Shown here in pieces: positions 22,255 to 31,950 of a stretch of 50,658 nt of DNA. Under the pieces are notes generated by a model. The model saw nothing but the letters and a program-made list of their open reading frames with translations. It had not been told where the DNA came from and did no database searches. The DNA lies in the NCBI RefSeq assembly GCF_005435165.1, contig NZ_SGUC01000021.1, positions 1-50,658 on the forward strand. Reading direction: 5' to 3'. Position 1 is the stretch's first letter. Each line of letters begins with the position of its first letter. The position numbers and the translations under genes are program-made. The stretch is from Halorubrum sp. GN11_10-6_MGM. Lineage in GTDB: Archaea; Halobacteriota; Halobacteria; Halobacteriales; Haloferacaceae.

Positions 22255-23146
22255 GGACGCGGGCGTCGAGCGGACGGACGCCGGCGGCGGGAGTCGAGTC
22301 GGCACGGCCGACCCGGAGCGCGTCGAAACCGCCCGGCGAGAGGCGGCCGAGGCGGATCGGGTGATCGTCAAGGCGGGGACGAACTCGCTGACCGACGACG
22401 CCTCCCGGCTCGACCGCGTGAAGCTGGACAAGCTCGTCGCGGACGTGATGGACCTCCGCGAGCGCGGCACGGAGGTCGTGCTGGTCTCCTCGGGCGCCGT
22501 CGGCGCCGGGACGGGCCGGCTCGACGTGGGCCCCGAGTCGCGAGAGGGCGTCGAGTCGATCGCCGAGAGCCAAGCGCTCTCGACGGTCGGCCAAGGGCTG
22601 CTGATGCGCCACTACACGCAGAGCTTCGAGCGGTTCGACCAGGACGTGGCGCAGATCCTCGTGACGGGGACCGACCTCGACGCGCCCGAGCGGTTCGACA
22701 ACTTCACAAACACCGTCGAGACGCTGCTGTCGTGGGGGGTCGTCCCGGTCGTCAACGAGAACGACGCGGTCGCGACCGACGAGCTGCGGATCGGCGACAA
22801 CGACATGCTGTCGGCGTCGATCGCGATCGGGCTCGACGCCGACCTCCTCGTGACGCTCACCGACGTCGACGGCGTCTACACCGGGAACCCGAAACGCGAC
22901 GCCGACGCGGAGCTGATCGAGGCGGTCGACGACGGCTACGAGCGGCTCCGCGAGATCGTCGGCGGCGGAACGGAGACCGACTTCGGCGGCATCCGCACGA
23001 AGGTGGAGGGCGCCCACGACGTGAGCCGCCACGGGATCCCCGCGATCATCGCGGGCTCCGCCGAGCGCGACGTGCTGGCGCGGATCGCAGCGGGTAAGCC
23101 GGCGGGCACGCTATTCGTCCCGAAGACGGGTGACGACGATGAGTGA
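22247..23146 (+). CDS. proB: Glutamate 5-kinase
   Basis: The protein has 299 residues with an amino-acid-kinase fold: [81 protein letters not shown], and [24 protein letters not shown]. It makes glutamyl-5-phosphate, the first step of proline synthesis. No C-terminal PUA domain is present; the protein ends after the kinase domain, as in some archaeal and bacterial short forms. The ATG at 22247 overlaps the proC end; a longer in-frame start is inside proC and not supported. Confidence 0.92.
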
Positions 23147-24512
23147 GAACGCCCCCGACACCGAACCCGATAGCGACGTGGAAGCCGACACCGACGAGCT
23201 GGCCCGGCGGGCCGAGCGCGCGGCGCTCCGGCTCGCGAACGCCGACGAGGCGACTCGAAACGAGGCGCTGCGCTCGATCGCCGACGCGATCCGCGACCGC
23301 GAGGCCGAGATCCTCGAGGCGAACGCCGAGGACGTCGCGGCGGCGGAGGCGATGCTCGCGGACGGCGAGTACACGCAGGCCCTGGTCGACCGCCTGAAGC
23401 TCGACGAGACGAAAATCGAGGAGATCGCCTCGATGGTGGAGTCGGTCGCCGAACAGGACGACCCGCTCGGCGAGACGCTCGCGGCCCGCGAGCTCGACGA
23501 GGACCTGGAGCTGTACCGCGTGGCGGTGCCGATCGGCGTGGTCGCGACCGTCTTCGAGTCGCGGCCCGACGCGCTGGTCCAGATCGCGGCGCTCGCGCTG
23601 AAGTCCGGCAACGCCGTCGTCCTCAAGGGCGGCAGCGAGGCGAGCGAGTCGAACCGAATCCTCCACGAGGCGATCGTCGAGGCCACTCCCGACCTCCCCG
23701 ACGGGTGGGCGGCCCACGTCGAGGCCCACGAGGAGGTCGATCGCCTCCTCGAACTCGACGACCGGGTCGACCTCGTGATGCCCCGCGGCTCCTCGGAGTT
23801 CGTCTCCTACATCCAGGAGAACACGCAGATCCCCGTGCTCGGTCACACCGAGGGGATCTGTCACGTGTACGTCGACGCGGACGCCGACCTGGAGATGGCG
23901 GAAGACGTGGCCTTCGACGCGAAGGTACAGTACCCCGCCGTCTGTAACGCGGTCGAGACGCTGCTCGTCCACGACTCCGTCGCCGACGCGTTCCTCCCGG
24001 ATCTCGTCGCGCGCTACGAGGACGCCGGCGTCGAACTGCGCGGCGACGAGCGCACGCGCGAGGTCGTCGACGTTGCGCCCGCGACCGACGACGACTGGGA
24101 CACCGAGTACGGCGACCTCGAACTGTCGATCAAGGTCGTCGGCGACCCCTACGACGCGATCGACCACGTCAACGACCACGGCTCGAAACACACCGAGTCC
24201 ATCCTCACCGAGGACACCGAGACGGCGGAAGCGTTCATGACCGGCGTCGACGCCGCGAGCGTCTTCCACAACGCGTCGACCCGGTTCGCGGACGGTTACC
24301 GCTACGGCCTCGGCGCGGAGGTCGGGATCTCCACCGGGAAGATCCACGCCCGCGGCCCGGTCGGGCTGGAGGGGCTCACGACGTACAAGTACTACCTCGA
24401 AGGCGACGGCCACCTCGTCGCGAGCTACAGCGGCGAGGACGCGCTCCCGTTCACGCACCTGGAACTCGACGGCGTCGACTGGACGCCCGGTCGGCTGTCG
24501 AGGGAGCAGTAG
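23139..24512 (+). CDS. proA: Gamma-glutamyl phosphate reductase
   Basis: The protein has 457 residues from ATG 23139, which overlaps the proB stop by 8 nt (ATGAGTGA). It is an aldehyde-dehydrogenase-fold enzyme: [68 protein letters not shown], and the catalytic Cys region [14 protein letters not shown]. The C-terminus has [31 protein letters not shown]. It reduces glutamyl-5-phosphate to glutamate semialdehyde. It is the last core gene before the low-GC island, which starts about 100 bp after its stop. Confidence 0.94.
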
Positions 24513-24700
24513 CGGTTCGCGCGGGTCGGAATTTCACTCTCGATTTCCCTTCCGAGTAGACGGCGTCTCGTTCCGATTTTTCGGTAGATCGCGGATTGGG
24601 GCGAATCAGGTGACACGCACACTGTAGTTGCGGATGCCAAAATTGCTGTACGGGATTCAATCTAGACGACCTCTACTGAAACCATCCGTTAGAAAATATT
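24513..24700. other. Junction between proA and the low-GC island
   Basis: Base composition falls from GC-rich to AT-rich across this stretch. Apart from the bracketing repeat at 24611-24657, no gene, tRNA or clear attachment site is seen. Confidence 0.45.
24611..24657 (-). repeat. Left copy of an imperfect inverted repeat bracketing the island
   Basis: Read on the minus strand this has CCGTACAGCAA, an 11-nt spacer, then GCAACTACAGTGTGCG. The same order (CCGTACAGCAA, spacer of 13, GCAACCACAGCGCAC) occurs on the plus strand at 32113-32158. It may mark the island edges or be ends of a lost insertion sequence. Confidence 0.4.
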
Positions 24701-24777
24701 GTCTCCGTTGAAATACCCTTCTTCAGATGTATTCTTGTCTGAAACAGCTGTTCGATGAGACCTGCGTATCTTACTTC

Positions 24778-24945
24778 TCAACGATCAAACTCGTTATTCC
24801 CAACCAGATACGAACCATATAATAAGAGGGCAACAGGCACTAAAAACCCGAATATATCTGACCCTCGGTAGAAGTTAGCTACCGCCAAGCCTAGTATCGA
24901 TACCTGAACACCGATGATACTCTTGTTTGCGCTCATGTTAATCAT
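24778..24945 (-). CDS. 55-residue membrane protein carried by element E1
   Basis: This small gene encodes a 55-residue protein (MINMSANKSIIGVQVSILGL at the N-terminus) with two hydrophobic spans (about 10-26 and 31-48) joined by NFYRGSDIF and ending VGNNEFDR. An internal ATG at 24936 is an alternative start. Hydrophobicity, a clean frame and placement inside E1, in the position where the other elements carry small membrane proteins, support it being real. No family is recognised. The host element is split by E2, but this gene is intact. Confidence 0.5.
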   Translation of the reverse strand: MINMSANKSIIGVQVSILGLAVANFYRGSDIFGFLVPVALLLYGSYLVGNNEFDR

Positions 24946-25019
24946 ATTCTGTTCATTACAGATAATCTCTCGCCATCTCAGCCGGCCTCGTACTATATGG
25001 AGATCTAGTCTACTAGTGA

Positions 25020-25591
25020 GGCTCTGTTGAAATCCTATTCTTCAGACATAACATCATGTGAAACAGCCGGTCATATTGAGCCGATTTAGTATCTACCACT
25101 CGCTTAGACGAAAGCCAGCAGTCAGTACAATACCGCGTTACTCCACCTTTTTAGAGAATTTCTTGAGTACGTAGTCTGCGACTTTTCCGGCAACTGAGAT
25201 GCCGATCAAGAAGGCTACTGCCAGCAGGAGTATTTGCCACAAGAAAGCGGCACCAAGGTTCAGGTTAAACAGAATAGCTGTATCTACGAAAAACACATAC
25301 ATAGCATACATCAATGGAAGCCCGACTACGAGAACAGATCCGAAGTAAGTCAGGCCGGCTATTGCCAACGGGCGACGGCTGTACGTAGAGGTGCTCATCA
25401 CGTGTAAATGTGTACTTTTTACGTAAAGTCTTTCGGGCAGATTGCTCCAAATGGACTCTTTCACTCATAGAACGACTGGCTGATCCACACAAGAACGTAT
25501 GAAACCGATAATAACTGAACGCTGACTTCACCATCTGTACTGGCCGCGACTGGGTCAGAATATATCACTGTTTGAGGATTTCAACAGAGCC
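25020..25591. mobile_element. Element E2 (572 bp, 16-bp perfect terminal inverted repeats)
   Basis: The left end GGCTCTGTTGAAATCC (25020-25035) is exactly inverted at 25576-25591. The left end continues into the shared hairpin (TTCAGACAT...ATGTGAAAC), and the right end is preceded by TGTACTGGCCGCGACTGGG (25536-25554), related to E3 and E4. It has one small gene and no transposase, and is inserted inside E1. No clear target-site duplication is visible (left flank ACTAGTGA, right flank ACATTCTC). The GGCTCTGTTG ends resemble IS6-family termini, so trans-mobilisation by such a transposase is possible (inference). Confidence 0.7.
25138..25398 (-). CDS. 86-residue membrane protein carried by element E2
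   Basis: The protein has 86 residues from MSTSTYSRRPLAIAG. Two strong hydrophobic segments (LTYFGSVLVVGLPLMYAMYVFFV and AAFLWQILLLAVAFLIGISVAG) are followed by a basic tail (LKKFSKKVE). The T-rich TTTACGTAAAAAG box just upstream on the minus strand (about 25410-25422) suggests its own promoter. A longer start at 25464 exists but adds a polar N-terminus overlapping the promoter. No family recognised; it shares size class and membrane nature, not sequence, with the genes in E1, E3 and E4. Confidence 0.65.
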   Translation of the reverse strand: MSTSTYSRRPLAIAGLTYFGSVLVVGLPLMYAMYVFFVDTAILFNLNLGAAFLWQILLLAVAFLIGISVAGKVADYVLKKFSKKVE

Positions 25592-25781
25592 ACATTCTCC
25601 TGATGTCGGATACTTGTACTGAGCGATTCCTGAGTCACCTACACTGACCGGAACCGGGCAGAAATATGTACTCACTGGGGATTTCAACAAAGCCCAGCCG
25701 ATTCCTCTGTGGGGAGACAGTGAACTCATGATTTCAAAACGCCAGGATACATTCGGAAGATTCGGAAACGCCACACTTCCA
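25592..25781. other. Right arm of E1 and the orc1-like promoter region, no gene
   Basis: This holds the right end of E1 (to 25694) and about 90 bp before the orc1-like gene. No origin-type repeat (haloarchaeal ORB elements are GC-rich GTTCCA..GAAAC-like blocks) is seen beside the orc1-like gene. Confidence 0.4.
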
Positions 25782-25788
25782 TTTATTA
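25782..25788 (+). promoter_or_regulatory. TATA box of the orc1-like gene
   Basis: TTTATTA lies 23-29 nt before the ATG at 25811, leaderless spacing. Confidence 0.5.
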
Positions 25789-25810
25789 GCCTCGCCTCTC
25801 GTCGACACCC

Positions 25811-26815
25811 ATGATCACGGACGCTCGGGTACTCCAACCGGAGTTCATCCCACGGGAGGTGACGCATCGAGACGCCGAAGTCAACACGCTCTCAAGCGTC
25901 CTGCAGCCCATTCTTGATGGAAACTCTACTGACCCCGCATTCCTCCACGGCCCATCCGGCGTCGGGAAAACCTGCATCGCACAGTTCACCGTTGAGCGAC
26001 TGCGCGAGAACGTCGTTGACCTCAACCACCAGTACGTCAACTGCTGGGAGGACTACAGCCGCTTCAAAACGCTCTACACCCTCCTAGAGGGCATCAACAA
26101 AACAATCGACATTCACCGACAGTCAACCCCGCGAGACCAGCTCCTCGATCGTCTCCGCGACTACGACGGCCCACCCTATGTTGTTATCCTCGATGAAGTA
26201 GACCAGCTAGAAGACAAGAGTCTCCTGTACGATCTGTACCGGATTCGCGGCCTCACAATGATCCTCATCGCAAACAATGAACAGGGAGTCTTCGCAGATG
26301 TTGATGACCGAATCAACAGCCGCCTCGCTAACGCCACCCGCATCCATTTCAGACAATACCACCACGACGAATTGGTTGCTATCCTCCACGATCGTGTCTC
26401 TTGGGGACTCAACCCAGACGTAATCAACGCGAACGAATTGAGTCTAATTGCGAATAATGCAGCTGGTGATGCTCGCGTGGCTATTGGAATACTTCGCCAA
26501 GCTGCTCGCACCGCCAACGCTCAACAGATGAATAAAATCGGCGATGGCGTTATTCGGAAAGTGACTCCGGAAGCGAAATCGGAAATCAAGCAGAAAACCG
26601 TTGATCGTCTCACTACCCACCAGGAAGTCCTATACAAGGCCATCACCGAGTACGGAGAAATCCAACCGAATGAATTGTACGAGGAGTATTGTAATCGAGT
26701 GGGTGATCCAAAGACGCAACGCATGGTCCGGAACTACTTATCGAAGCTTGAACACTACAATCTCATCGAGGCAGAAGGCAACACGCGGGGGCGGACCTAC
26801 CGTACAGTCGCGTAA
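25811..26815 (+). CDS. Small Orc1/Cdc6-like AAA+ ATPase
   Basis: The protein has 334 residues, shorter than chromosomal haloarchaeal Orc1/Cdc6 (usually about 400 or more). Walker A is GPSGVGKT (about residues 46-53), Walker [14 protein letters not shown] (about 124), sensor 1 [10 protein letters not shown] and the sensor 2 Arg region [17 protein letters not shown]-terminal winged helix follows ([24 protein letters not shown]...[24 protein letters not shown]). These proteins bind origin DNA and load helicase; divergent short forms are common on plasmids, viruses and islands. No ORB-like repeats are seen beside it. Element E3 begins within 4 bp of its stop. Codon use is AT-richer than the flanking core. 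Confidence 0.88.
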
Positions 26816-26818
26816 TGA

Positions 26819-27445
26819 GCCCTGTTGAAATCTCTTCTTCAGACATATTTATACCTGAAACAACTGGCCGCTGAATACTGCAAGTGGTTCGGCTTCCCTG
26901 TGATAATATTTTATACAACGCAGGTTGTTTTTTGATATATGGCCCCCTCGCTCTCACCCGCTACACGACAATTCCTTGTATTCGTATTTGTAGGAATATA
27001 CGCTCTGTTGAGCCTTCTCCGACTCATGGAGGGTGGTTTCATTCCATGGGGCTCTGTTGTGGGTATTGGAGTCGGTATCGCACTCCTTGCCGGTCCGGTT
27101 GTCTGGGTTGCGCGTGACCGATATCCGGAACAGCGCCGAGAGCGTTTGTCATTAGTAGCATTTGGTATCGGTATGATTGTCTTTCCTCTCACTCTCGGTC
27201 TTCTACTTGCGTTCGGCGCACCCCCGTTTATACCGTCATCTGACGTTCTCATTATTGGGGCTTACGTTGGACTGCTCTTTGCTCACACAGCAGAACGCAC
27301 GGTTGTGCCGGAACGGTTGCGAGCTGTCAATTAGAAATCTGACTACTGATTGTATATGTATATACTGTACTGAATGACTCGTGAGCCCCCTGTACTGACC
27401 ACAACAAAGCCAAATCTCTCATCTACTGAGGGCTTCAACAGAAGC
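26819..27445. mobile_element. Element E3 (627 bp cassette)
   Basis: The left end GCCCTGTTGAAATCT (26819-26833) has the shared hairpin TTCAGACATATTTATACCTGAA. The right end (inverse of GCTTCTGTTGAAGCCCTC) is at 27428-27445, preceded by TGTACTGACCACAAC at 27391-27405. It carries one membrane-protein gene. It occupies nearly the whole gap between the orc1-like stop (26815) and the nuclease start (27498). Confidence 0.62.
26939..27334 (+). CDS. 131-residue four-span membrane protein carried by element E3
   Basis: The protein has 131 residues. Hydrophobic segments are FLVFVFVGIYALLSLLRLM, VVGIGVGIALLAGPVVWVA, LVAFGIGMIVFPLTLGLLLAFG and VLIIGAYVGLLFAHTA. The ATATTTTATAC-like box at about 26907-26917 lies 22-32 nt before the ATG. 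No enzyme motif or known family. It is the largest of the four cassette-borne membrane proteins. Confidence 0.65.
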   Translation: MAPSLSPATRQFLVFVFVGIYALLSLLRLMEGGFIPWGSVVGIGVGIALLAGPVVWVARDRYPEQRRERLSLVAFGIGMIVFPLTLGLLLAFGAPPFIPSSDVLIIGAYVGLLFAHTAERTVVPERLRAVN

Positions 27446-27497
27446 TTTCGGAAACAACACGCCCTTGCCTTTGACCCCGACTGCACGTCCTATTCGT

Positions 27498-28625
27498 ATG
27501 ACTGGTGATAATCCACAGAAAGGCCCCGAGTTCAATATTCCCGTCGACGAAACAGGCGCGGTTGGTACTGATCTCAACGTCACAGAGAACATCGTTCACC
27601 GTGTCTCGAATCGGACCTTCACCGAGTGGTACAACGAACAGCAATTTGAGCAGAACATCTTGGAGGGCAAAGCGTATTTCAATGGGCTGTCGCCGCCGAA
27701 AGACCCGGAACGTCACACCCCGAGCAAACTGCTACAGTGTCACCGGAAAGCGAGCTACGCCCGACAGAACGCACCACGAGAAGGTGTGCCCCCGAAGGGG
27801 CTATTCTGGGTCGGCAGTGCCTTCGAGGAGGATTTCATCGTCCCATACCTGCAAGAGGTCATCCCCGACCAGTTGTACGTACAGAACTCGTTGTGGATAG
27901 ATACGACCATCAGTCGAGACAGGACAGAGCTCCGGATTCGAGGGTCTACTGACCCAGCAATCGTCACGAGTGAGGCTAACCCACTGTTTCTGACAGAAAT
28001 TAAGACAACAACCTCTCTAGACCACCTTGATGAGCCGAAGAGTCACCACAAAGCGCAGCTCCACGCCTACCTACATGCACTCAATGAGATGAGTGACCAC
28101 TCCATTACCGACGGAATGCTCGTGTACGGATCGCGTGAAACATTTGATCTCAAAACCTTCCATGTCACGTTCAACTCAGAGTTCTGGGACACAATCGTCG
28201 AGTGGATGGTAGCCCAAACGGAGTATGAACAGGATGGTGAATTACCGCCGGCAACGCCCGAGCGTGACTGGGAGTGCAACTATTGCTCTTTCAAACATCG
28301 GTGTGGGAAAGCTAATACACCGTACGCAGACACAGGGTACACCGGGTTACTCCCACTGTTTGAAGAGTATGACCGAGAGAACCTCACCGACTATCTTGAC
28401 TCACGGGCCGATGCGAAACTCACCCCAACACTCGCTCATGTATTCTCTGATCTCACGGACACGTACAGTGTGTACGACTGGTCGTGCCCCCGGTGTAGTG
28501 AGACCTACGCTTGGGATGCTGTAGACTGGGACGGTGATACGTCTGAACCACCGGTCTGTTCTGAATGCCTTACTGATGGGGAGCTACTTACTCTAAGCGG
28601 GCCAGAACCGGCTGAACAGCAGTGA
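27498..28625 (+). CDS. Cas4-like PD-(D/E)XK nuclease with Fe-S-type cysteines and a C-terminal zinc ribbon
   Basis: The protein has 375 residues from MTGDNPQKGPEF; a longer frame starts 11 codons upstream. Cys81 (LLQCHRKASYARQ) and Cys260/263/269 (CNYCSFKHRC) give the C...CxxCx5C set that binds a 4Fe-4S cluster in Cas4/AddB-type nucleases. The catalytic core is Asp152 (GSTDPAIV) and Glu167-x-Lys169 (FLTEIKTTTS), with a QLHAYLHAL helix after it. The C-terminus adds CPRCSETYAW...CSECLTDG, a probable zinc ribbon. Cas4-like enzymes process DNA ends; no cas genes or CRISPR repeats are visible here. It lies between E3 and E4 and may take its promoter from E3's right end. Confidence 0.85.
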   Translation: MTGDNPQKGPEFNIPVDETGAVGTDLNVTENIVHRVSNRTFTEWYNEQQFEQNILEGKAYFNGLSPPKDPERHTPSKLLQCHRKASYARQNAPREGVPPKGLFWVGSAFEEDFIVPYLQEVIPDQLYVQNSLWIDTTISRDRTELRIRGSTDPAIVTSEANPLFLTEIKTTTSLDHLDEPKSHHKAQLHAYLHALNEMSDHSITDGMLVYGSRETFDLKTFHVTFNSEFWDTIVEWMVAQTEYEQDGELPPATPERDWECNYCSFKHRCGKANTPYADTGYTGLLPLFEEYDRENLTDYLDSRADAKLTPTLAHVFSDLTDTYSVYDWSCPRCSETYAWDAVDWDGDTSEPPVCSECLTDGELLTLSGPEPAEQQ

Positions 28626-28629
28626 CCCG

Positions 28630-29116
28630 GGCTCTTAGAATCCGATTCTTCAGACATATTCTTGTCTGAAACAGCTGGTCACTGAACGGTGCTTGTTCGT
28701 CAGTAACTCGTCCCCGTGGCGATAGTACTGTAGAGAGTAAGAGTATCACCAACGTTTTCGAATAGCGTAAACGAGGACCGTCAGTTAGTTGCGACTCCAA
28801 ATGTAGACGACGAGTGCGAGTATCCCCCCGAAAAACGTCGTGATTGTGAGCACGCCGACACCAATAGCCCACAACGCGGCGTTGTTGTTGCCGCGTTTCT
28901 TGGCATCGGTGTACACCCAGTAGCTTACTACAAAGGGCAAAATAAGCCATACTATAGCCAGAAGCCCAACAGCAGGAGGAATCGCAAATTGGAGCGAGAT
29001 CATAATATACTATACAATCTTTATAATAAAAAGAGCATCGACTGTTGCTACGTCTATCCCCTGTACTGACCACAACGGGAACAACACGTAGCATCACTGA
29101 GGAGTTCAACAGAATC
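28630..29116. mobile_element. Element E4 (487 bp cassette)
   Basis: The left end GGCTCTTAGAATCC (28630-28643) is a slightly degenerate copy that then matches the family exactly through ATTCTTCAGACATATTC, with the perfect hairpin TTCAGACA-TATTCT-TGTCTGAA. The right end GGAGTTCAACAGAATC (29101-29116) is preceded by TGTACTGACCACAAC at 29062-29076, identical to the E3 block. It carries one small membrane-protein gene and ends 9 bp before the stop of the winged-helix gene. Confidence 0.62.
28785..29003 (-). CDS. 72-residue membrane protein carried by element E4
   Basis: The protein has 72 residues: MISLQFAIPPAVGLLAIVWLILPFVVSYWVYTDAKKRG, then a short Asn-rich loop and LWAIGVGVLTITTFFGGILALVVYIW. 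The two-span arrangement with a YTDAKKRG turn resembles small PLDc_N-like membrane proteins common in haloarchaea. A TTTATTATAAAG box near 29022-29033 on the minus strand is its likely promoter. Function unknown. Confidence 0.65.
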   Translation of the reverse strand: MISLQFAIPPAVGLLAIVWLILPFVVSYWVYTDAKKRGNNNAALWAIGVGVLTITTFFGGILALVVYIWSRN

Positions 29117-29124
29117 GCAACTCC

Positions 29125-29931
29125 CTACGAATCAGTGTCGTCGTCTTCTTCGCTCGGTGGATATTCATCATAGGATACTTCTTCGAGCCTTTCTTGTTCC
29201 AATTCCTCTGGGTCTGTCGATTGATCGAGATCGGGAGCACGATCTGATGAAGAAGCAGACCCACTCGATGAATCATCGGTGGTTTCCTCGTCATCGTCCG
29301 CCTCTGTATCGCTAGTTTCTGAATCCGAATCCTCGGGTGGTATCAGGTCCACAGGTAACTCATCTTCAGGAGGGAAGTTATCTCCCTCACTCGGCCGTGC
29401 AGGTGGCTCGGTTTCTGGGTCATCCAAGTTGCTAGCGTACTTGTCAGCATCAGGTACTTCCTCACGTTCACTCGGTGATGGGGAATAGTTCGTGTTTGTT
29501 TCACTGTCCGAATCCTCGTCCATGTCGTCTTTGCTGATAATGGTTCCATCACCACCATTTCGAAACTGTAGGAGCTCCGATGGGTTCTCTTTCATCCACT
29601 GTACAAGACCGTCTGTCTGTTCGTCTACCGATTGTTGATGCGCCCGCATCTTTCGGTAGTTACTGACAATTCCCTCTCGTGCCATCTTGTCCGTCAGGAA
29701 CTCGCCCATATCGGTCAAAGTATACACGCGTTTGGTCCCGACTTCACCCTCACCGAGAGAAACGTCCAACAGTCCGAGTTCGGCAGCCTCGTCACGCCGT
29801 GCAACAATAGTTGAAGACGTCACATCTATTTCCGGTTCGATTTCCGAATACGTCATCGGGCGCTCGTGAAGTAGCGACAGTAGCCCAACTCCGCCTTTAC
29901 TCTGTAGAAACTCCTGAAGGGTTACAGCCAT
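29125..29931 (-). CDS. Winged-helix DNA-binding protein with long acidic tail
   Basis: The protein has 268 residues from MAVTLQEFLQSKGG; GGAGAT sits just before this ATG, and an alternative start lies 5 codons upstream. Residues 1-100 form a wHTH of the HxlR/PadR/ArsR sort (LLSLLHERPMTYSEIEPEIDVTSSTIVARRDEAAELGLL, then RVYTLTDMGEFLTDKM). The rest, from about residue 130, is disordered, very rich in Asp, Glu, Ser and Pro, with no fold. It could regulate the island or bind partner proteins through the tail. Convergent with E4 and the nuclease region; divergent from the transposase gene. Confidence 0.75.
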   Translation of the reverse strand: MAVTLQEFLQSKGGVGLLSLLHERPMTYSEIEPEIDVTSSTIVARRDEAAELGLLDVSLGEGEVGTKRVYTLTDMGEFLTDKMAREGIVSNYRKMRAHQQSVDEQTDGLVQWMKENPSELLQFRNGGDGTIISKDDMDEDSDSETNTNYSPSPSEREEVPDADKYASNLDDPETEPPARPSEGDNFPPEDELPVDLIPPEDSDSETSDTEADDDEETTDDSSSGSASSSDRAPDLDQSTDPEELEQERLEEVSYDEYPPSEEDDDTDS

Positions 29932-30180
29932 CAGATCTCCGTTCAAGGCCGGTCCATTTAGAAACCCAGTCTAACTCCAATTTGGAAATAACTAGATATT
30001 CGAGAAACCTAGAAAACCTGAAGAATAGGCCTCAAGACACTTTATTTAACCATTCATTCGGAAACTACACCCGCATACATATGCTCCATATTCGAGTTAC
30101 TATCTCTATGGTTGGCGCAATCGCACTCTGTCGTATCTCACGGACGTATTGCGCGCGTTCACGCGTGGACGGTGGTTTCG

Positions 30181-31950
30181 ATGAGTGACCCATCCGCTGT
30201 CGATGAACTCGGTTCTGGTCCTGCGTTGAATATGATCTCACAGCAAGCTGACGATGTCATAGACGATGGAACTGATTGGGCGGATCTCGGTCAGGAACTT
30301 GATGTCTCAATGTACCAGCGTGATGATGCGTACCCTGAGTGGCACGCTGAAACAACAGATTTCGAGCCGATGTTCTTGGCAATGCTGTGGGCAAAAACCG
30401 AGGATGAATCCGTTACTGGTCTTTCTGACCGTCTAAAATCGAACCCAGAGACTGCTGAGGCGTTTGGGTTCTCCGAAGATGACATCCCACACGGGGACAC
30501 GTTCGCTCGCGCATGGAGAGAACGATTTGAGTCCCTACAGGGGACTATCGAAACGACCGCAAAAACAATCGACGAAATTGCTACTGAACGCGGCAGTCCA
30601 ATCGGTGGGCACACTGGCTTGGAATTCGAAGAAACAGATGGGACGTCGAAACGAACAGAACAGCGTCTACTCCGAAAGAAGACGAAGGAAGTGTTGAACG
30701 AAATGGCTGGCGTTGTGTTTCCTGCTCTCGATCTCCCTCGTCCTAAGAACGCGATTTACGATCAGGACGATATGTTGGAATTGATGACTATCATGGGAAT
30801 GAAGGGTGTAGCTGCGAATAACGGCGCGGACCTCCACGGCGATAAACTCGCAGACAAGAAGGACATCCAACCGAGCGACCCGTTCTATGAAGACGGGATG
30901 CGAGGTGAGACATTACTCAACGCTATCCACAAACTCTCGGTAAACGCGATTACGGACATGGTGAACAGCGCAGCTCACCGCGCGTTGACCCGTATCAAAC
31001 CGTACGCTGAGTTCCCAGACCCTGTGTTCATGGCGATCGACATCACGTACGTCGCGTACTACGGTGAACGTGAAGGGCTCAAATGGGTGTCAGGCACGCC
31101 TGATCACAAACAGTACAAGTGGTGTCACAAATTCGCCACTGCAACACTCGTCGGGGAGGGAGTCCACATGGTTGTCGGGATGCTGCCAGTCGGTAACCCA
31201 GACTTCACCGACAACCAAGCGTATCCGGGAGGTGAAGAGAAATCGTACGTGGCAGGGGATGTCGTTCGGAAACTTCTCTCGAAAACGAAACGCCACGTGA
31301 CGCCGCGGTGCGTGTACGCTGACCGAGCATTCGCATCCGCTGATACGATTGCAGCGTTTGAACAGCATAACATGCGGTACTTGATGCCAGCTCCGCGGAA
31401 CGACCGAACGAAACTCTGGCTCAAGCGGAACGTAGACATGGAGCAAGGAATCGTTTCTGTTGAGCAGGAGTGGGCGTTGCGCGGAGCGGTGAAACACGGG
31501 GTGTCGAACGAGCGCGTCACGACAACGCTCATCGGGTTACCTGGTGATCCTGATGACGAACAGTACGGGTACGGCGAAACGGCTGATGAAGGTGAAGAAC
31601 TCATTCCTGAAGAGGACCAAGCTGCGGTTCCGTTCTATACGAACACACATGCAGACGATGAGATTGCGCTTGACCGCCGGCAGACCAAGCGAAAAGTTGA
31701 GCAGTACAACCGGAGAGGTGGGATTGAAACGGCGTACAAGAAGATCAAAGAGTTCGCTGCATGGACGACATCGAAGGAGTTTGAGGTTCGGTTGTGGCAT
31801 TTCGGGTTCGCTGTGCTTCTGTACAATGCGTGGCTGATGGTTGATTTCCTTGTACAGGCTGGGCTCGACAGAGAATTTCGGTCGAAACCGCGGATAACTG
31901 CGCAACGGTTCCTATCGTTTCTCGATCGGCAGCTAACACGACTAATATAG
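30181..31950 (+). CDS. Large ISH3-like DDE transposase
   Basis: The protein has 589 residues. ISH3-type landmarks appear in order: IPHGDTFARAWRERFE in the N-terminal part, first Asp in FMAIDITYVAYYGE (about 287), second in CVYADRAFASADTIAAFEQHNMRYLMPAPR (about 381), and the Glu in YNRRGGIETAYKKIKEFAAWTTSK (about 515) with WHFGFAVLLYNAWLMVDFL. Typical ISH3 proteins are near 390 residues, so this one has about 200 extra, mainly between the N-terminal part and the first Asp. The ATG at 30181 is chosen over an upstream in-frame start. Terminal inverted repeats were not found by eye, so element borders are not given. Confidence 0.8.
   Translation: MSDPSAVDELGSGPALNMISQQADDVIDDGTDWADLGQELDVSMYQRDDAYPEWHAETTDFEPMFLAMLWAKTEDESVTGLSDRLKSNPETAEAFGFSEDDIPHGDTFARAWRERFESLQGTIETTAKTIDEIATERGSPIGGHTGLEFEETDGTSKRTEQRLLRKKTKEVLNEMAGVVFPALDLPRPKNAIYDQDDMLELMTIMGMKGVAANNGADLHGDKLADKKDIQPSDPFYEDGMRGETLLNAIHKLSVNAITDMVNSAAHRALTRIKPYAEFPDPVFMAIDITYVAYYGEREGLKWVSGTPDHKQYKWCHKFATATLVGEGVHMVVGMLPVGNPDFTDNQAYPGGEEKSYVAGDVVRKLLSKTKRHVTPRCVYADRAFASADTIAAFEQHNMRYLMPAPRNDRTKLWLKRNVDMEQGIVSVEQEWALRGAVKHGVSNERVTTTLIGLPGDPDDEQYGYGETADEGEELIPEEDQAAVPFYTNTHADDEIALDRRQTKRKVEQYNRRGGIETAYKKIKEFAAWTTSKEFEVRLWHFGFAVLLYNAWLMVDFLVQAGLDREFRSKPRITAQRFLSFLDRQLTRLI

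What the first reader, a model, noticed from the sequence alone, without database searches (positions are those of the whole stretch)
25020..25591. E2 is nested inside E1, showing the cassette family has been mobile more than once
Order along the DNA is left end of E1, E1 gene, left end of E2, E2 gene, right end of E2, right end of E1. E2 termini are perfect inverted repeats while those of E1 are diverged, so E2 is the younger insertion. No direct repeat is evident at the E2 borders (ACTAGTGA versus ACATTCTC), which does not fit a simple cut-and-paste insertion with target duplication.
Basis: seen in the sequence. Interest (0 to 1): 0.55.

Follow-up and report, generated by a model that had tools for sequence, protein, structure and literature searches.

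The report
Mosaic of archaeal mobile gene cassettes
In salt-loving archaea, many small genes sit between the copied ends of one jumping-gene family; this stretch is not one cassette cleanly nested in another but a patchwork of several, and related genomes suggest that the cargo between the ends gets swapped.

Summary
The E2 cassette is real: 25020-25591, perfect 16-nt terminal repeats, a conserved small membrane-protein gene. It belongs to a multicopy family bounded by two distinct ends (L, about 59 nt; R, about 60 nt) shared with an IS5-family IS (ISHla2/ISHxa2-like transposase) in the same genome. The family inserts with 8-bp target duplications: 40 of 153 end pairs, and two clean empty sites. 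Transposase-free members are MIC-like mobile cassettes; 31 with duplications fall in 29 payload groups.

The nesting claim is half right. E2's left terminus sits inside E1's R end (uninterrupted E1 copies). But "E1's right end" (25694) is best read as the R end of a third cassette: a related genome has it at the same site beside the same cdc6, with another gene behind it. That, plus rearrangement, explains the missing duplication. "E2 is younger" is not supported: a related genome has E2 behind the same left flank, while E1 is 96.5% identical to a mobile copy in this genome.

New here: one flank and L end carry three different payloads in three genomes, and near-identical payloads carry different ends. 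Exchange at the ends is inferred.

The parts
24622..24700 (.). Chromosomal left flank shared with G009 and G016 (72/80 ungapped identity to each)
24701..24759 (+). L end (diverged) at the left of E1; G009 and G016 have an L end at the same nucleotide of the same flank
24778..24945 (-). E1 payload gene, 55 aa, small membrane protein; copies with own TSDs at L011, L020, L044
24946..25019 (.). E1 region toward its R end, cut off after ACTAGTGA
   Evidence: alignment to uninterrupted copies
25020..25072 (+). L end of E2 (GGCTCTGTTGAAATCC...GAAACAGCCGGTC), fused to the payload with about 67 bp fewer than in G009
25138..25464 (-). E2 payload gene, 108-aa ORF; conserved part starts at 25398 (86 aa), 89.5% and 90.7% aa identity in G009 and G046, third codon position changes most
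25532..25591 (-). R end of E2, with a TCAGTACAG-type box (GGCCAGTACAG)
25592..25614 (.). 23 bp of unassigned origin between E2's R end and the third R end
25615..25694 (-). R end of a third cassette, next to cdc6; same position in G009 with a different (146 aa) gene behind it
25811..26815 (+). Orc1/Cdc6 family gene lying between cassettes
   Evidence: TIGR02928 192 bits
26818..26875 (+). L end of the next cassette (E3)
26939..27334 (+). E3 payload, 131 aa membrane protein; E3 interior 94.3% identical over 471 nt to L013:8432-8902
27388..27445 (-). R end of E3
28628..28685 (+). L end of a fourth cassette (E4), outer part degenerate
28785..29003 (-). E4 payload, 72 aa; E4 interior 99.5% identical over 366 nt to the passenger region of a transposase-bearing IS (L017:2649-3968) in the same genome
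29058..29116 (-). R end of E4

Best explanation
The site is a mosaic of at least three (with E3 and E4: five) mobile gene cassettes of one family. Shown: an IS5-family IS with an open 273-aa DDE transposase gene (ISHla2/ISHxa2-like) exists in this genome; it shares the terminal repeat and the whole L end with transposase-free cassettes that carry unrelated genes, often small membrane proteins; both kinds insert with 8-bp target duplications. Inferred: the IS transposase moves the cassettes in trans. Locally (inferred), E1 came to lie behind an old, fixed L end; an L terminus was joined by transposition inside E1's R end (exact terminus at 25020); and the right side was rearranged so that E2's R end now nearly abuts the R end of an older third cassette, which removed the target duplication. 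More generally (inferred from sharp identity breaks), the region between the inner edge of the L end and a TCAGTACAG box of the R end behaves as an exchangeable payload module: payloads are swapped between cassettes, or the ends are overwritten, by recombination in the conserved ends.
For: Family and mobility: 27+30 pattern hits against 0+1 in the reversed control in the own genome; 49 of 52 genus genomes; 34 of 146 order genomes in 21 of 56 genera, own genome and genus members included; exact 8-bp TSD in 40 of 153 convergent pairs against 411 of 200,000 random flank pairs; gapless empty sites in G021 and G028. Transposase: NF033579 transpos_IS5_2 216 bits, Pfam DDE_Tnp_1; 93.8% identical to ISHla2 and 96.0% to ISHxa2. 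Local mosaic. Payload module: behind one flank and L end, G009 and G016 match 78/80 (flank) and 58/62 (L end) but 31/150 beyond; the window matches them 72/80 each in the flank and 32/150 and 40/150 beyond the L end. A histidine-kinase payload is 98-99% identical in three genomes with three different flanks, while the ends differ at 7-16 of 40-62 positions per end (Fisher ends vs interior p 2.8e-7 to 1.4e-22). E4's interior is 99.5% identical to the passenger region of an IS and breaks at the L-end edge and at the box (L end vs interior p 9e-13). A box (<=3 mismatches to a 12-mer) starts 3-5 nt past the last aligned transposase codon in 16 of 19 copies with at least 86% identity. In 102 L-R elements the first box lies at position 47-48 from the R terminus in 62 of the 68 that have one, and 17 of 24 spacings between boxes are 25 nt; R side 92 boxes, opposite strand 3, L side 8.
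Against: E2 itself has no TSD, so its own transposition at this site is not directly shown. By own-genome matches alone the third R end could be E1-type (L020, 73.2% over 82 nt, tied with L010). The exchange mechanism is inferred from patterns; fast change of the ends by gene conversion would explain part of it (same-site pairs also show slightly more change in the ends: 2/120 vs 0/505 and 3/120 vs 1/639). One different-site pair (L143/L144, same genome) is identical throughout, as plain transposition predicts. Among more distant pairs, which I did not test, L137/L014 has the L end more alike (90-93%) than the interior (87.3%), R end 76%. At the four ends compared between window and G009 by gapped alignment, the 150 bp inward score above a single reversed control at three (A 58/166 vs 45/205; B 67/167 vs 50/152, where the window side is E2's R end and not a payload; C 53/172 vs 48/202) and not at one (D 57/156 vs 58/155). 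Window-G009 L-end identity (41/58, 43/59) is about that of L ends of unrelated cassettes, so orthology there rests on position. Assemblies are drafts (own genome 200 contigs; the G016 payload lies at a contig end), so a misjoin at repeated ends cannot be excluded for single loci. The box (9-12 nt) is short for homologous recombination.
Confidence: 0.72

Rival explanations
1. Simple nested insertion: E2 transposed into E1, and the target duplication has since been lost by point mutation.
For: E2's left terminus lies exactly inside E1's R end; the piece right of E2 resembles the R end of the E1-type cassette L020 (73.2% over 82 nt); nested insertions with TSD do exist in the family (L011:14235-14614 in another R end; L040:3565-4210 in the first 8 bp of another R end).
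Against: Measured against L011, the closest E1 copy, the piece right of E2 is about 42 nt too long, and in G009 it lies at the same site with another gene behind it. 6 of 8 TSD positions differ, although E1 is only a few percent from its mobile copy.
Confidence: 0.1
2. Insertion hot spot plus deletion: cassettes keep inserting in each other's ends, and recombination between repeated L ends or R ends deletes what lies between; no special exchange module is needed.
For: Insertions into ends with TSD are seen; L-L and R-R bounded units with TSD exist (2 of 15 and 2 of 11 pairs).
Against: Does not by itself explain near-identical payloads with different ends on both sides at three different sites, unless ends are also converted.
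Confidence: 0.4
3. Only the ends change: gene conversion among the many copies per genome overwrites ends, while cassettes otherwise move normally.
For: Ends differ more than interiors in 6 of 7 different-site pairs tested (three of them one payload) and mildly in both same-site pairs; identity breaks coincide with the limits of shared homology.
Against: Cannot explain one flank and L end with three unrelated payloads in three genomes.
Confidence: 0.3
4. Assembly chimera at repeated ends.
For: Draft genome of 200 contigs with many copies of the ends.
Against: The repeats in question are not identical (E1 interior 96.5% to L011; E2's L end 95% to its best other own-genome copy); similar breaks occur in independent assemblies.
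Confidence: 0.07

Closest known systems
IS231-MIC231 of Bacillus cereus (mobile insertion cassettes; IS4 family)
   Same: Passenger genes between IS ends, with and without a transposase; MIC231 mobilised in trans (as told in passages of PMC3913671 and PMC2266710; the original papers were not read).
   Different: Archaeal, IS5 transposase, 8-bp TSD, two distinct long ends, very diverse payloads (29 groups in 31 elements), evidence for exchange of payload or ends.
ISHla2 / ISHxa2 (IS5 family, haloarchaea)
   Same: Transposase 93.8% and 96.0% identical; same terminal repeat; one or two other genes follow the transposase.
   Different: The window's cassettes lack the transposase and have another R end inside the terminal repeat.
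ISH2-type elements / HqIRS32 of Haloquadratum and Halobacterium
   Same: About 520-bp transposase-free haloarchaeal element with a non-transposase ORF (PMC3119063, passages).
   Different: Relation by sequence not tested; described there with homologous short ORFs, not a set of unrelated payloads.
Transporter ISs (tIS) and MITEs
   Same: IS copies with passenger genes (tIS), and IS-related elements without a transposase (MITEs, MICs), as described in passages of PMC3129680.
   Different: Here forms with and without a transposase share one payload slot (E4 and L017).
Integron gene cassettes
   Same: Many unrelated small genes flanked by a common sequence (recalled, by analogy).
   Different: No integrase or attC was sought; movement is by terminal repeats with TSD.

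Membership tests
Mobile insertion cassette (MIC) | Terminal inverted repeats shared with an IS | tested here: met
   Cassettes and the transposase-bearing IS share the terminal repeat and the L end (the L terminus of L012 has one mismatch)
Mobile insertion cassette (MIC) | No transposase, other gene(s) instead | tested here: met
   33 of 40 TSD elements lack it; E2 carries a conserved 86-aa gene
Mobile insertion cassette (MIC) | Target duplication (family as a whole) | tested here: met
   40 of 153 pairs, 8 bp, and two empty sites
Mobile insertion cassette (MIC) | Target duplication at E2 itself | tested here: not met
   Flanks differ at 6 of 8 positions; membership is claimed for the family, E2 being part of a rearranged mosaic
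Mobile insertion cassette (MIC) | Mobilised in trans by the cognate transposase | not testable with these tools
   Needs a transposition assay
IS5 family (ISHla2-like) | DDE transposase of the IS5 family | tested here: met
   NF033579 216 bits, cut-off 140
IS5 family (ISHla2-like) | TSD of the transposase-bearing form | tested here: met
   L012, L051, L052, L106, L118 exact 8 bp between an R and an L end
IS6 family | IS6-type transposase (the 8-bp TSD and a TGTTG-containing end resemble it, recalled) | tested here: not met
   Transposase matches IS5 models; no IS6 model among the hits
Integron cassettes | attC sites and tyrosine integrase | not tested
   Analogy only

The most novel reading that the evidence does not exclude
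The cassettes form an archaeal gene-exchange system: the conserved L end on one side and the 25-nt-spaced TCAGTACAG boxes of the R end on the other are the seams at which payload genes are swapped between resident cassettes and transposase-bearing ISs, so that fixed genomic slots are refilled with new small membrane or regulatory genes without a new transposition.
Probability: 0.33. Interest if true: 0.8.

Novelty: new variant of a known kind. Interest (0 to 1): 0.58.

Why it matters
A genus-wide pool of small genes moves on shared IS ends in haloarchaea, some of it in stretches without annotated genes. It can account for orphan small membrane proteins, gives exact boundaries and empty sites with which to annotate them, and suggests that archaea have a modular gene-cassette economy comparable to IS231-MIC231 and, loosely, to integrons. 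Payload swapping is directly testable.

Tried and rejected
IS6 family, suggested by the 8-bp TSD and the TGTTG-containing end (recalled): rejected, the transposase is IS5. Simple nested insertion: disfavoured on the right side. A tRNA or Rfam RNA as insertion site: none found (whole window for tRNA, 23000-30500 at gathering threshold for Rfam). Viral carriage: one exact L-end pattern in viral contigs, 0 matches, a weak test. Defence role: PADLOC on 10 proteins, 8 of them cassette payloads, gave hits for one payload only, a trypsin-like protein (PDC-S45, 64 bits); the two others with hits were the Cas4-like and Cdc6 proteins. The virus-induced passenger gene Hlac_3088 (PMC10544981, section 11 and passages read) was not tied to this family and is not used as evidence. 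An 'E2 older' claim is also not proven: a second, independent arrival of E2 in G009 remains possible. Literature: the listings (open-access library) showed no paper whose title or abstract start describes this cassette family; of the listed papers I read passages of five (PMC10544981, PMC3119063, PMC3129680, PMC2266710, PMC3913671).

Full report
1. Observation. E2 runs from 25020 to 25591 with perfect 16-nt inverted termini. In the window, 6 sites match the terminus at up to 3 mismatches, 0.22 expected in shuffles. In the own genome (3.32 Mb, 200 contigs) the 15-mer at up to 2 mismatches gives 27 forward and 30 reverse sites against 0 and 1 for the reversed control. The genus is probably Halorubrum: two contigs of genus members have exactly the lengths of pHLAC01 and pHrrPV6 (431,338 and 300,774); this is an inference.

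2. Anatomy of the family. Two kinds of end recur: an L end of about 59 nt with an internal inverted repeat (TTCAGAC...GTCTGAA) and an R end of about 60 nt with a TCAGTACAG box. In 102 L-R elements, 68 have a box within 400 nt of the R terminus at up to 1 mismatch and 34 have none; the first box lies at position 47-48 in 62 of the 68; 17 of 24 spacings between successive boxes are 25 nt; totals are 92 on the R side, 3 on its opposite strand, 8 on the L side. In the window there are four L ends (24701, 25020, 26818, 28628) and five R ends (25591, 25694, 27445, 29116, all by profile; 25694 being the extra one beside E2's 25591), that is four R ends in all, with E1's own R end cut off.

3. Mobility. 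I examined 114 loci (window, 19 own-genome stretches, 6 first relative stretches, 8 plasmid stretches, 80 stretches of relatives chosen around L-end or similarity hits, so enriched for the family). Of 153 convergent end pairs, 40 have an exact 8-bp flank repeat: 36 of 127 L-R, 2 of 15 L-L, 2 of 11 R-R; random flank pairs agree in 411 of 200,000. Many of the 153 pairs are alternative pairings of the same ends, so 40 of 153 is not a rate of intact elements. Two cassettes (L137, L131) have clean empty sites in other genomes (92% identity, no gap across the joint, one target copy).

4. Transposase. Four of the own-genome stretches hold a 273-aa match of 93% or more to the transposase (L010, L012, L017, L024); open 273-aa ORFs were seen in L012 and L017, and L012:10377-11731 has TSD AGATATGT. 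It is IS5 family, 93.8% identical to ISHla2 and 96.0% to ISHxa2. Of 220 plasmid records with a match, 44 have one at 80% identity or more; the 30 records listed are haloarchaeal by name. In eight annotated neighbourhoods what follows the transposase varies: for example 57 aa in pHLAC01, 236 aa followed by an RDD protein in pHALXA01, 169 aa in pCBA1232-02; in CP002989 another transposase follows. So the autonomous element often carries a variable passenger.

5. Payloads. Of 40 TSD elements 33 lack the transposase; in 21 of these 33 the longest ORF has a predicted membrane span, against 123 of 1602 shuffles (a simple hydropathy rule, and the longest ORF is not always the gene). Payloads include an RDD protein (own genome, L010:1886-2527, no TSD) and, in TSD elements, an M48 peptidase, a 7TM histidine kinase, a hexapeptide-repeat protein and a trypsin-like protein; 5 of the 10 payload ORFs had no Pfam hit and one a sub-threshold one. 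By protein similarity (up to three longest ORFs, blastp 1e-4, which can overcount groups of short proteins), 31 transposase-free L-R elements with TSD fall in 29 groups, and all 85 in 64. The E2 gene is conserved: 89.5% and 90.7% aa identity in G009 and G046, changes by codon position 6,4,12 and 5,4,18; E1 against L011 1,0,6; E3 against L013 6,5,8.

6. What E1/E2 is. Two uninterrupted E1 relatives in the same genome show that E2's L terminus starts inside E1's R end. To the right, 25615-26881 (third R end, cdc6 and the next L end) aligns at 91.5% to G009 (L040), where a 146-aa gene lies behind that R end; the L end belonging to it there is not identified, because another R end follows at L040:10383. 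By own-genome matches alone the piece is equally near L020 (E1-type) and L010 (73.2% over 82 nt). To the left, G009 and G016 have an L end at the same nucleotide of the same flank, followed in G009 by E2 and in G016 by a third gene (109 aa). So E1 is framed by ends that other cassettes have in relatives, and E2 lies in this locus in G009 too. The 23 bp at 25592-25614 are of unknown origin. E2 also lacks about 67 bp between L end and payload compared with G009. I cannot give a full order of events.

7. Exchange. (a) One flank and L end, different payloads: G009 vs G016 flank 78/80, L end 58/62, next 150 bp 31/150; window vs each 72/80, 41/58 and 39/58, 32/150 and 40/150, ungapped. By gapped alignment four ends were compared between window and G009; flanks 72/80 (A), 69/80 (B), 72/81 (C), 62/88 or 67/83 with one TSD copy left out (D); inward 150 bp 58/166, 67/167, 53/172, 57/156 against single reversed controls 45/205, 50/152, 48/202, 58/155. 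A, B and C are thus somewhat above control; at B the window side is E2's R end, not a payload. (b) Near-identical payload, different ends: I tested 9 pairs chosen from the list plus E1/L011 and E4/L017. Of 7 different-site pairs, 6 have ends more diverged than the interior (p 3.9e-4 or lower; three of them are one payload), 1 is identical throughout; both same-site pairs show a slight excess in the ends (p 0.037 and 0.014); E1/L011 p 6e-8 and E4/L017 p 9e-13, both L end only. Rows not tested: pairs whose shared interior is the transposase, nested re-pairings of one locus, the other E1-type and E2-type pairs, L084/L136, L040/L046 and L137/L014; in the last the L end (90-93%) is more alike than the interior (87.3%), the R end less (76%). 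(c) In E4 and the histidine-kinase cassettes the breaks lie at the inner edge of the L end and at a box; in E3 only the right break can be read, also at a box. A box directly follows the transposase gene in 16 of 19 copies of at least 86% identity; left out of that count are a 79% copy and four distant ones (35.6-40%), all without a box, and four partial rows. Exchange at these seams, end conversion, or insertion followed by deletion can all contribute; which dominates is open.

8. Comparison. Closest known are the modular IS231-MIC231 elements; PMC2266710 (passages read) says such modularity had not yet been seen in other IS families. In haloarchaea, PMC3119063 (passages read) reports ISH2-type elements with a non-transposase ORF. 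The listings of nine searches of the open-access library showed no description of this IS5 cassette family; that library lacks most subscription papers, and ISfinder was not searched.

9. Verdict. Real, part of a widespread mobile cassette family; nesting half right; E2 not shown to be younger. New variant of a known kind; the payload-exchange reading is the interesting part and remains inferred.

Noticed in passing
L013:4011-4630 and L019:2457-3215: A second sub-family with a near-identical terminal repeat but other subterminal sequence; L013:4011-4630 has TSD ACTGAGGT and a 98-aa ORF with two predicted membrane spans.
   Followed up: no
L017:2122-3968; L128:931-2801: Units bounded by two L ends with exact 8-bp TSD, the first holding a cassette plus a transposase-bearing IS in opposite orientation: possible composite mobilisation by L-L ends.
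   Followed up: partly
L040:3565-4210; L011:14235-14614: Cassettes with TSD that sit inside the R ends of other cassettes: true nesting seems to occur in the family.
   Followed up: partly
window 27465-28625: Cas4-like nuclease (TIGR00372 46.7 bits, below its cut-off of 65) between E3 and E4, near an Orc1/Cdc6 gene.
   Followed up: no
L041:5886-8341: TSD cassette carrying a trypsin-like protein that matches PADLOC model PDC-S45 (64 bits) and a 178-aa ORF with three predicted membrane spans.
   Followed up: no
NC_012030 306476-306937 (L156): Complete cassette in a published plasmid lying almost wholly in a stretch with no gene in the PLSDB table (which is incomplete): such cassettes may be invisible in annotation.
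   Followed up: no
L018:2115-2739 and L117:2177-2801: Cassette with identical interior and identical 30-nt flanks in the window genome and in another genome of the genus (G010), suggesting recent exchange of a larger DNA segment.
   Followed up: no
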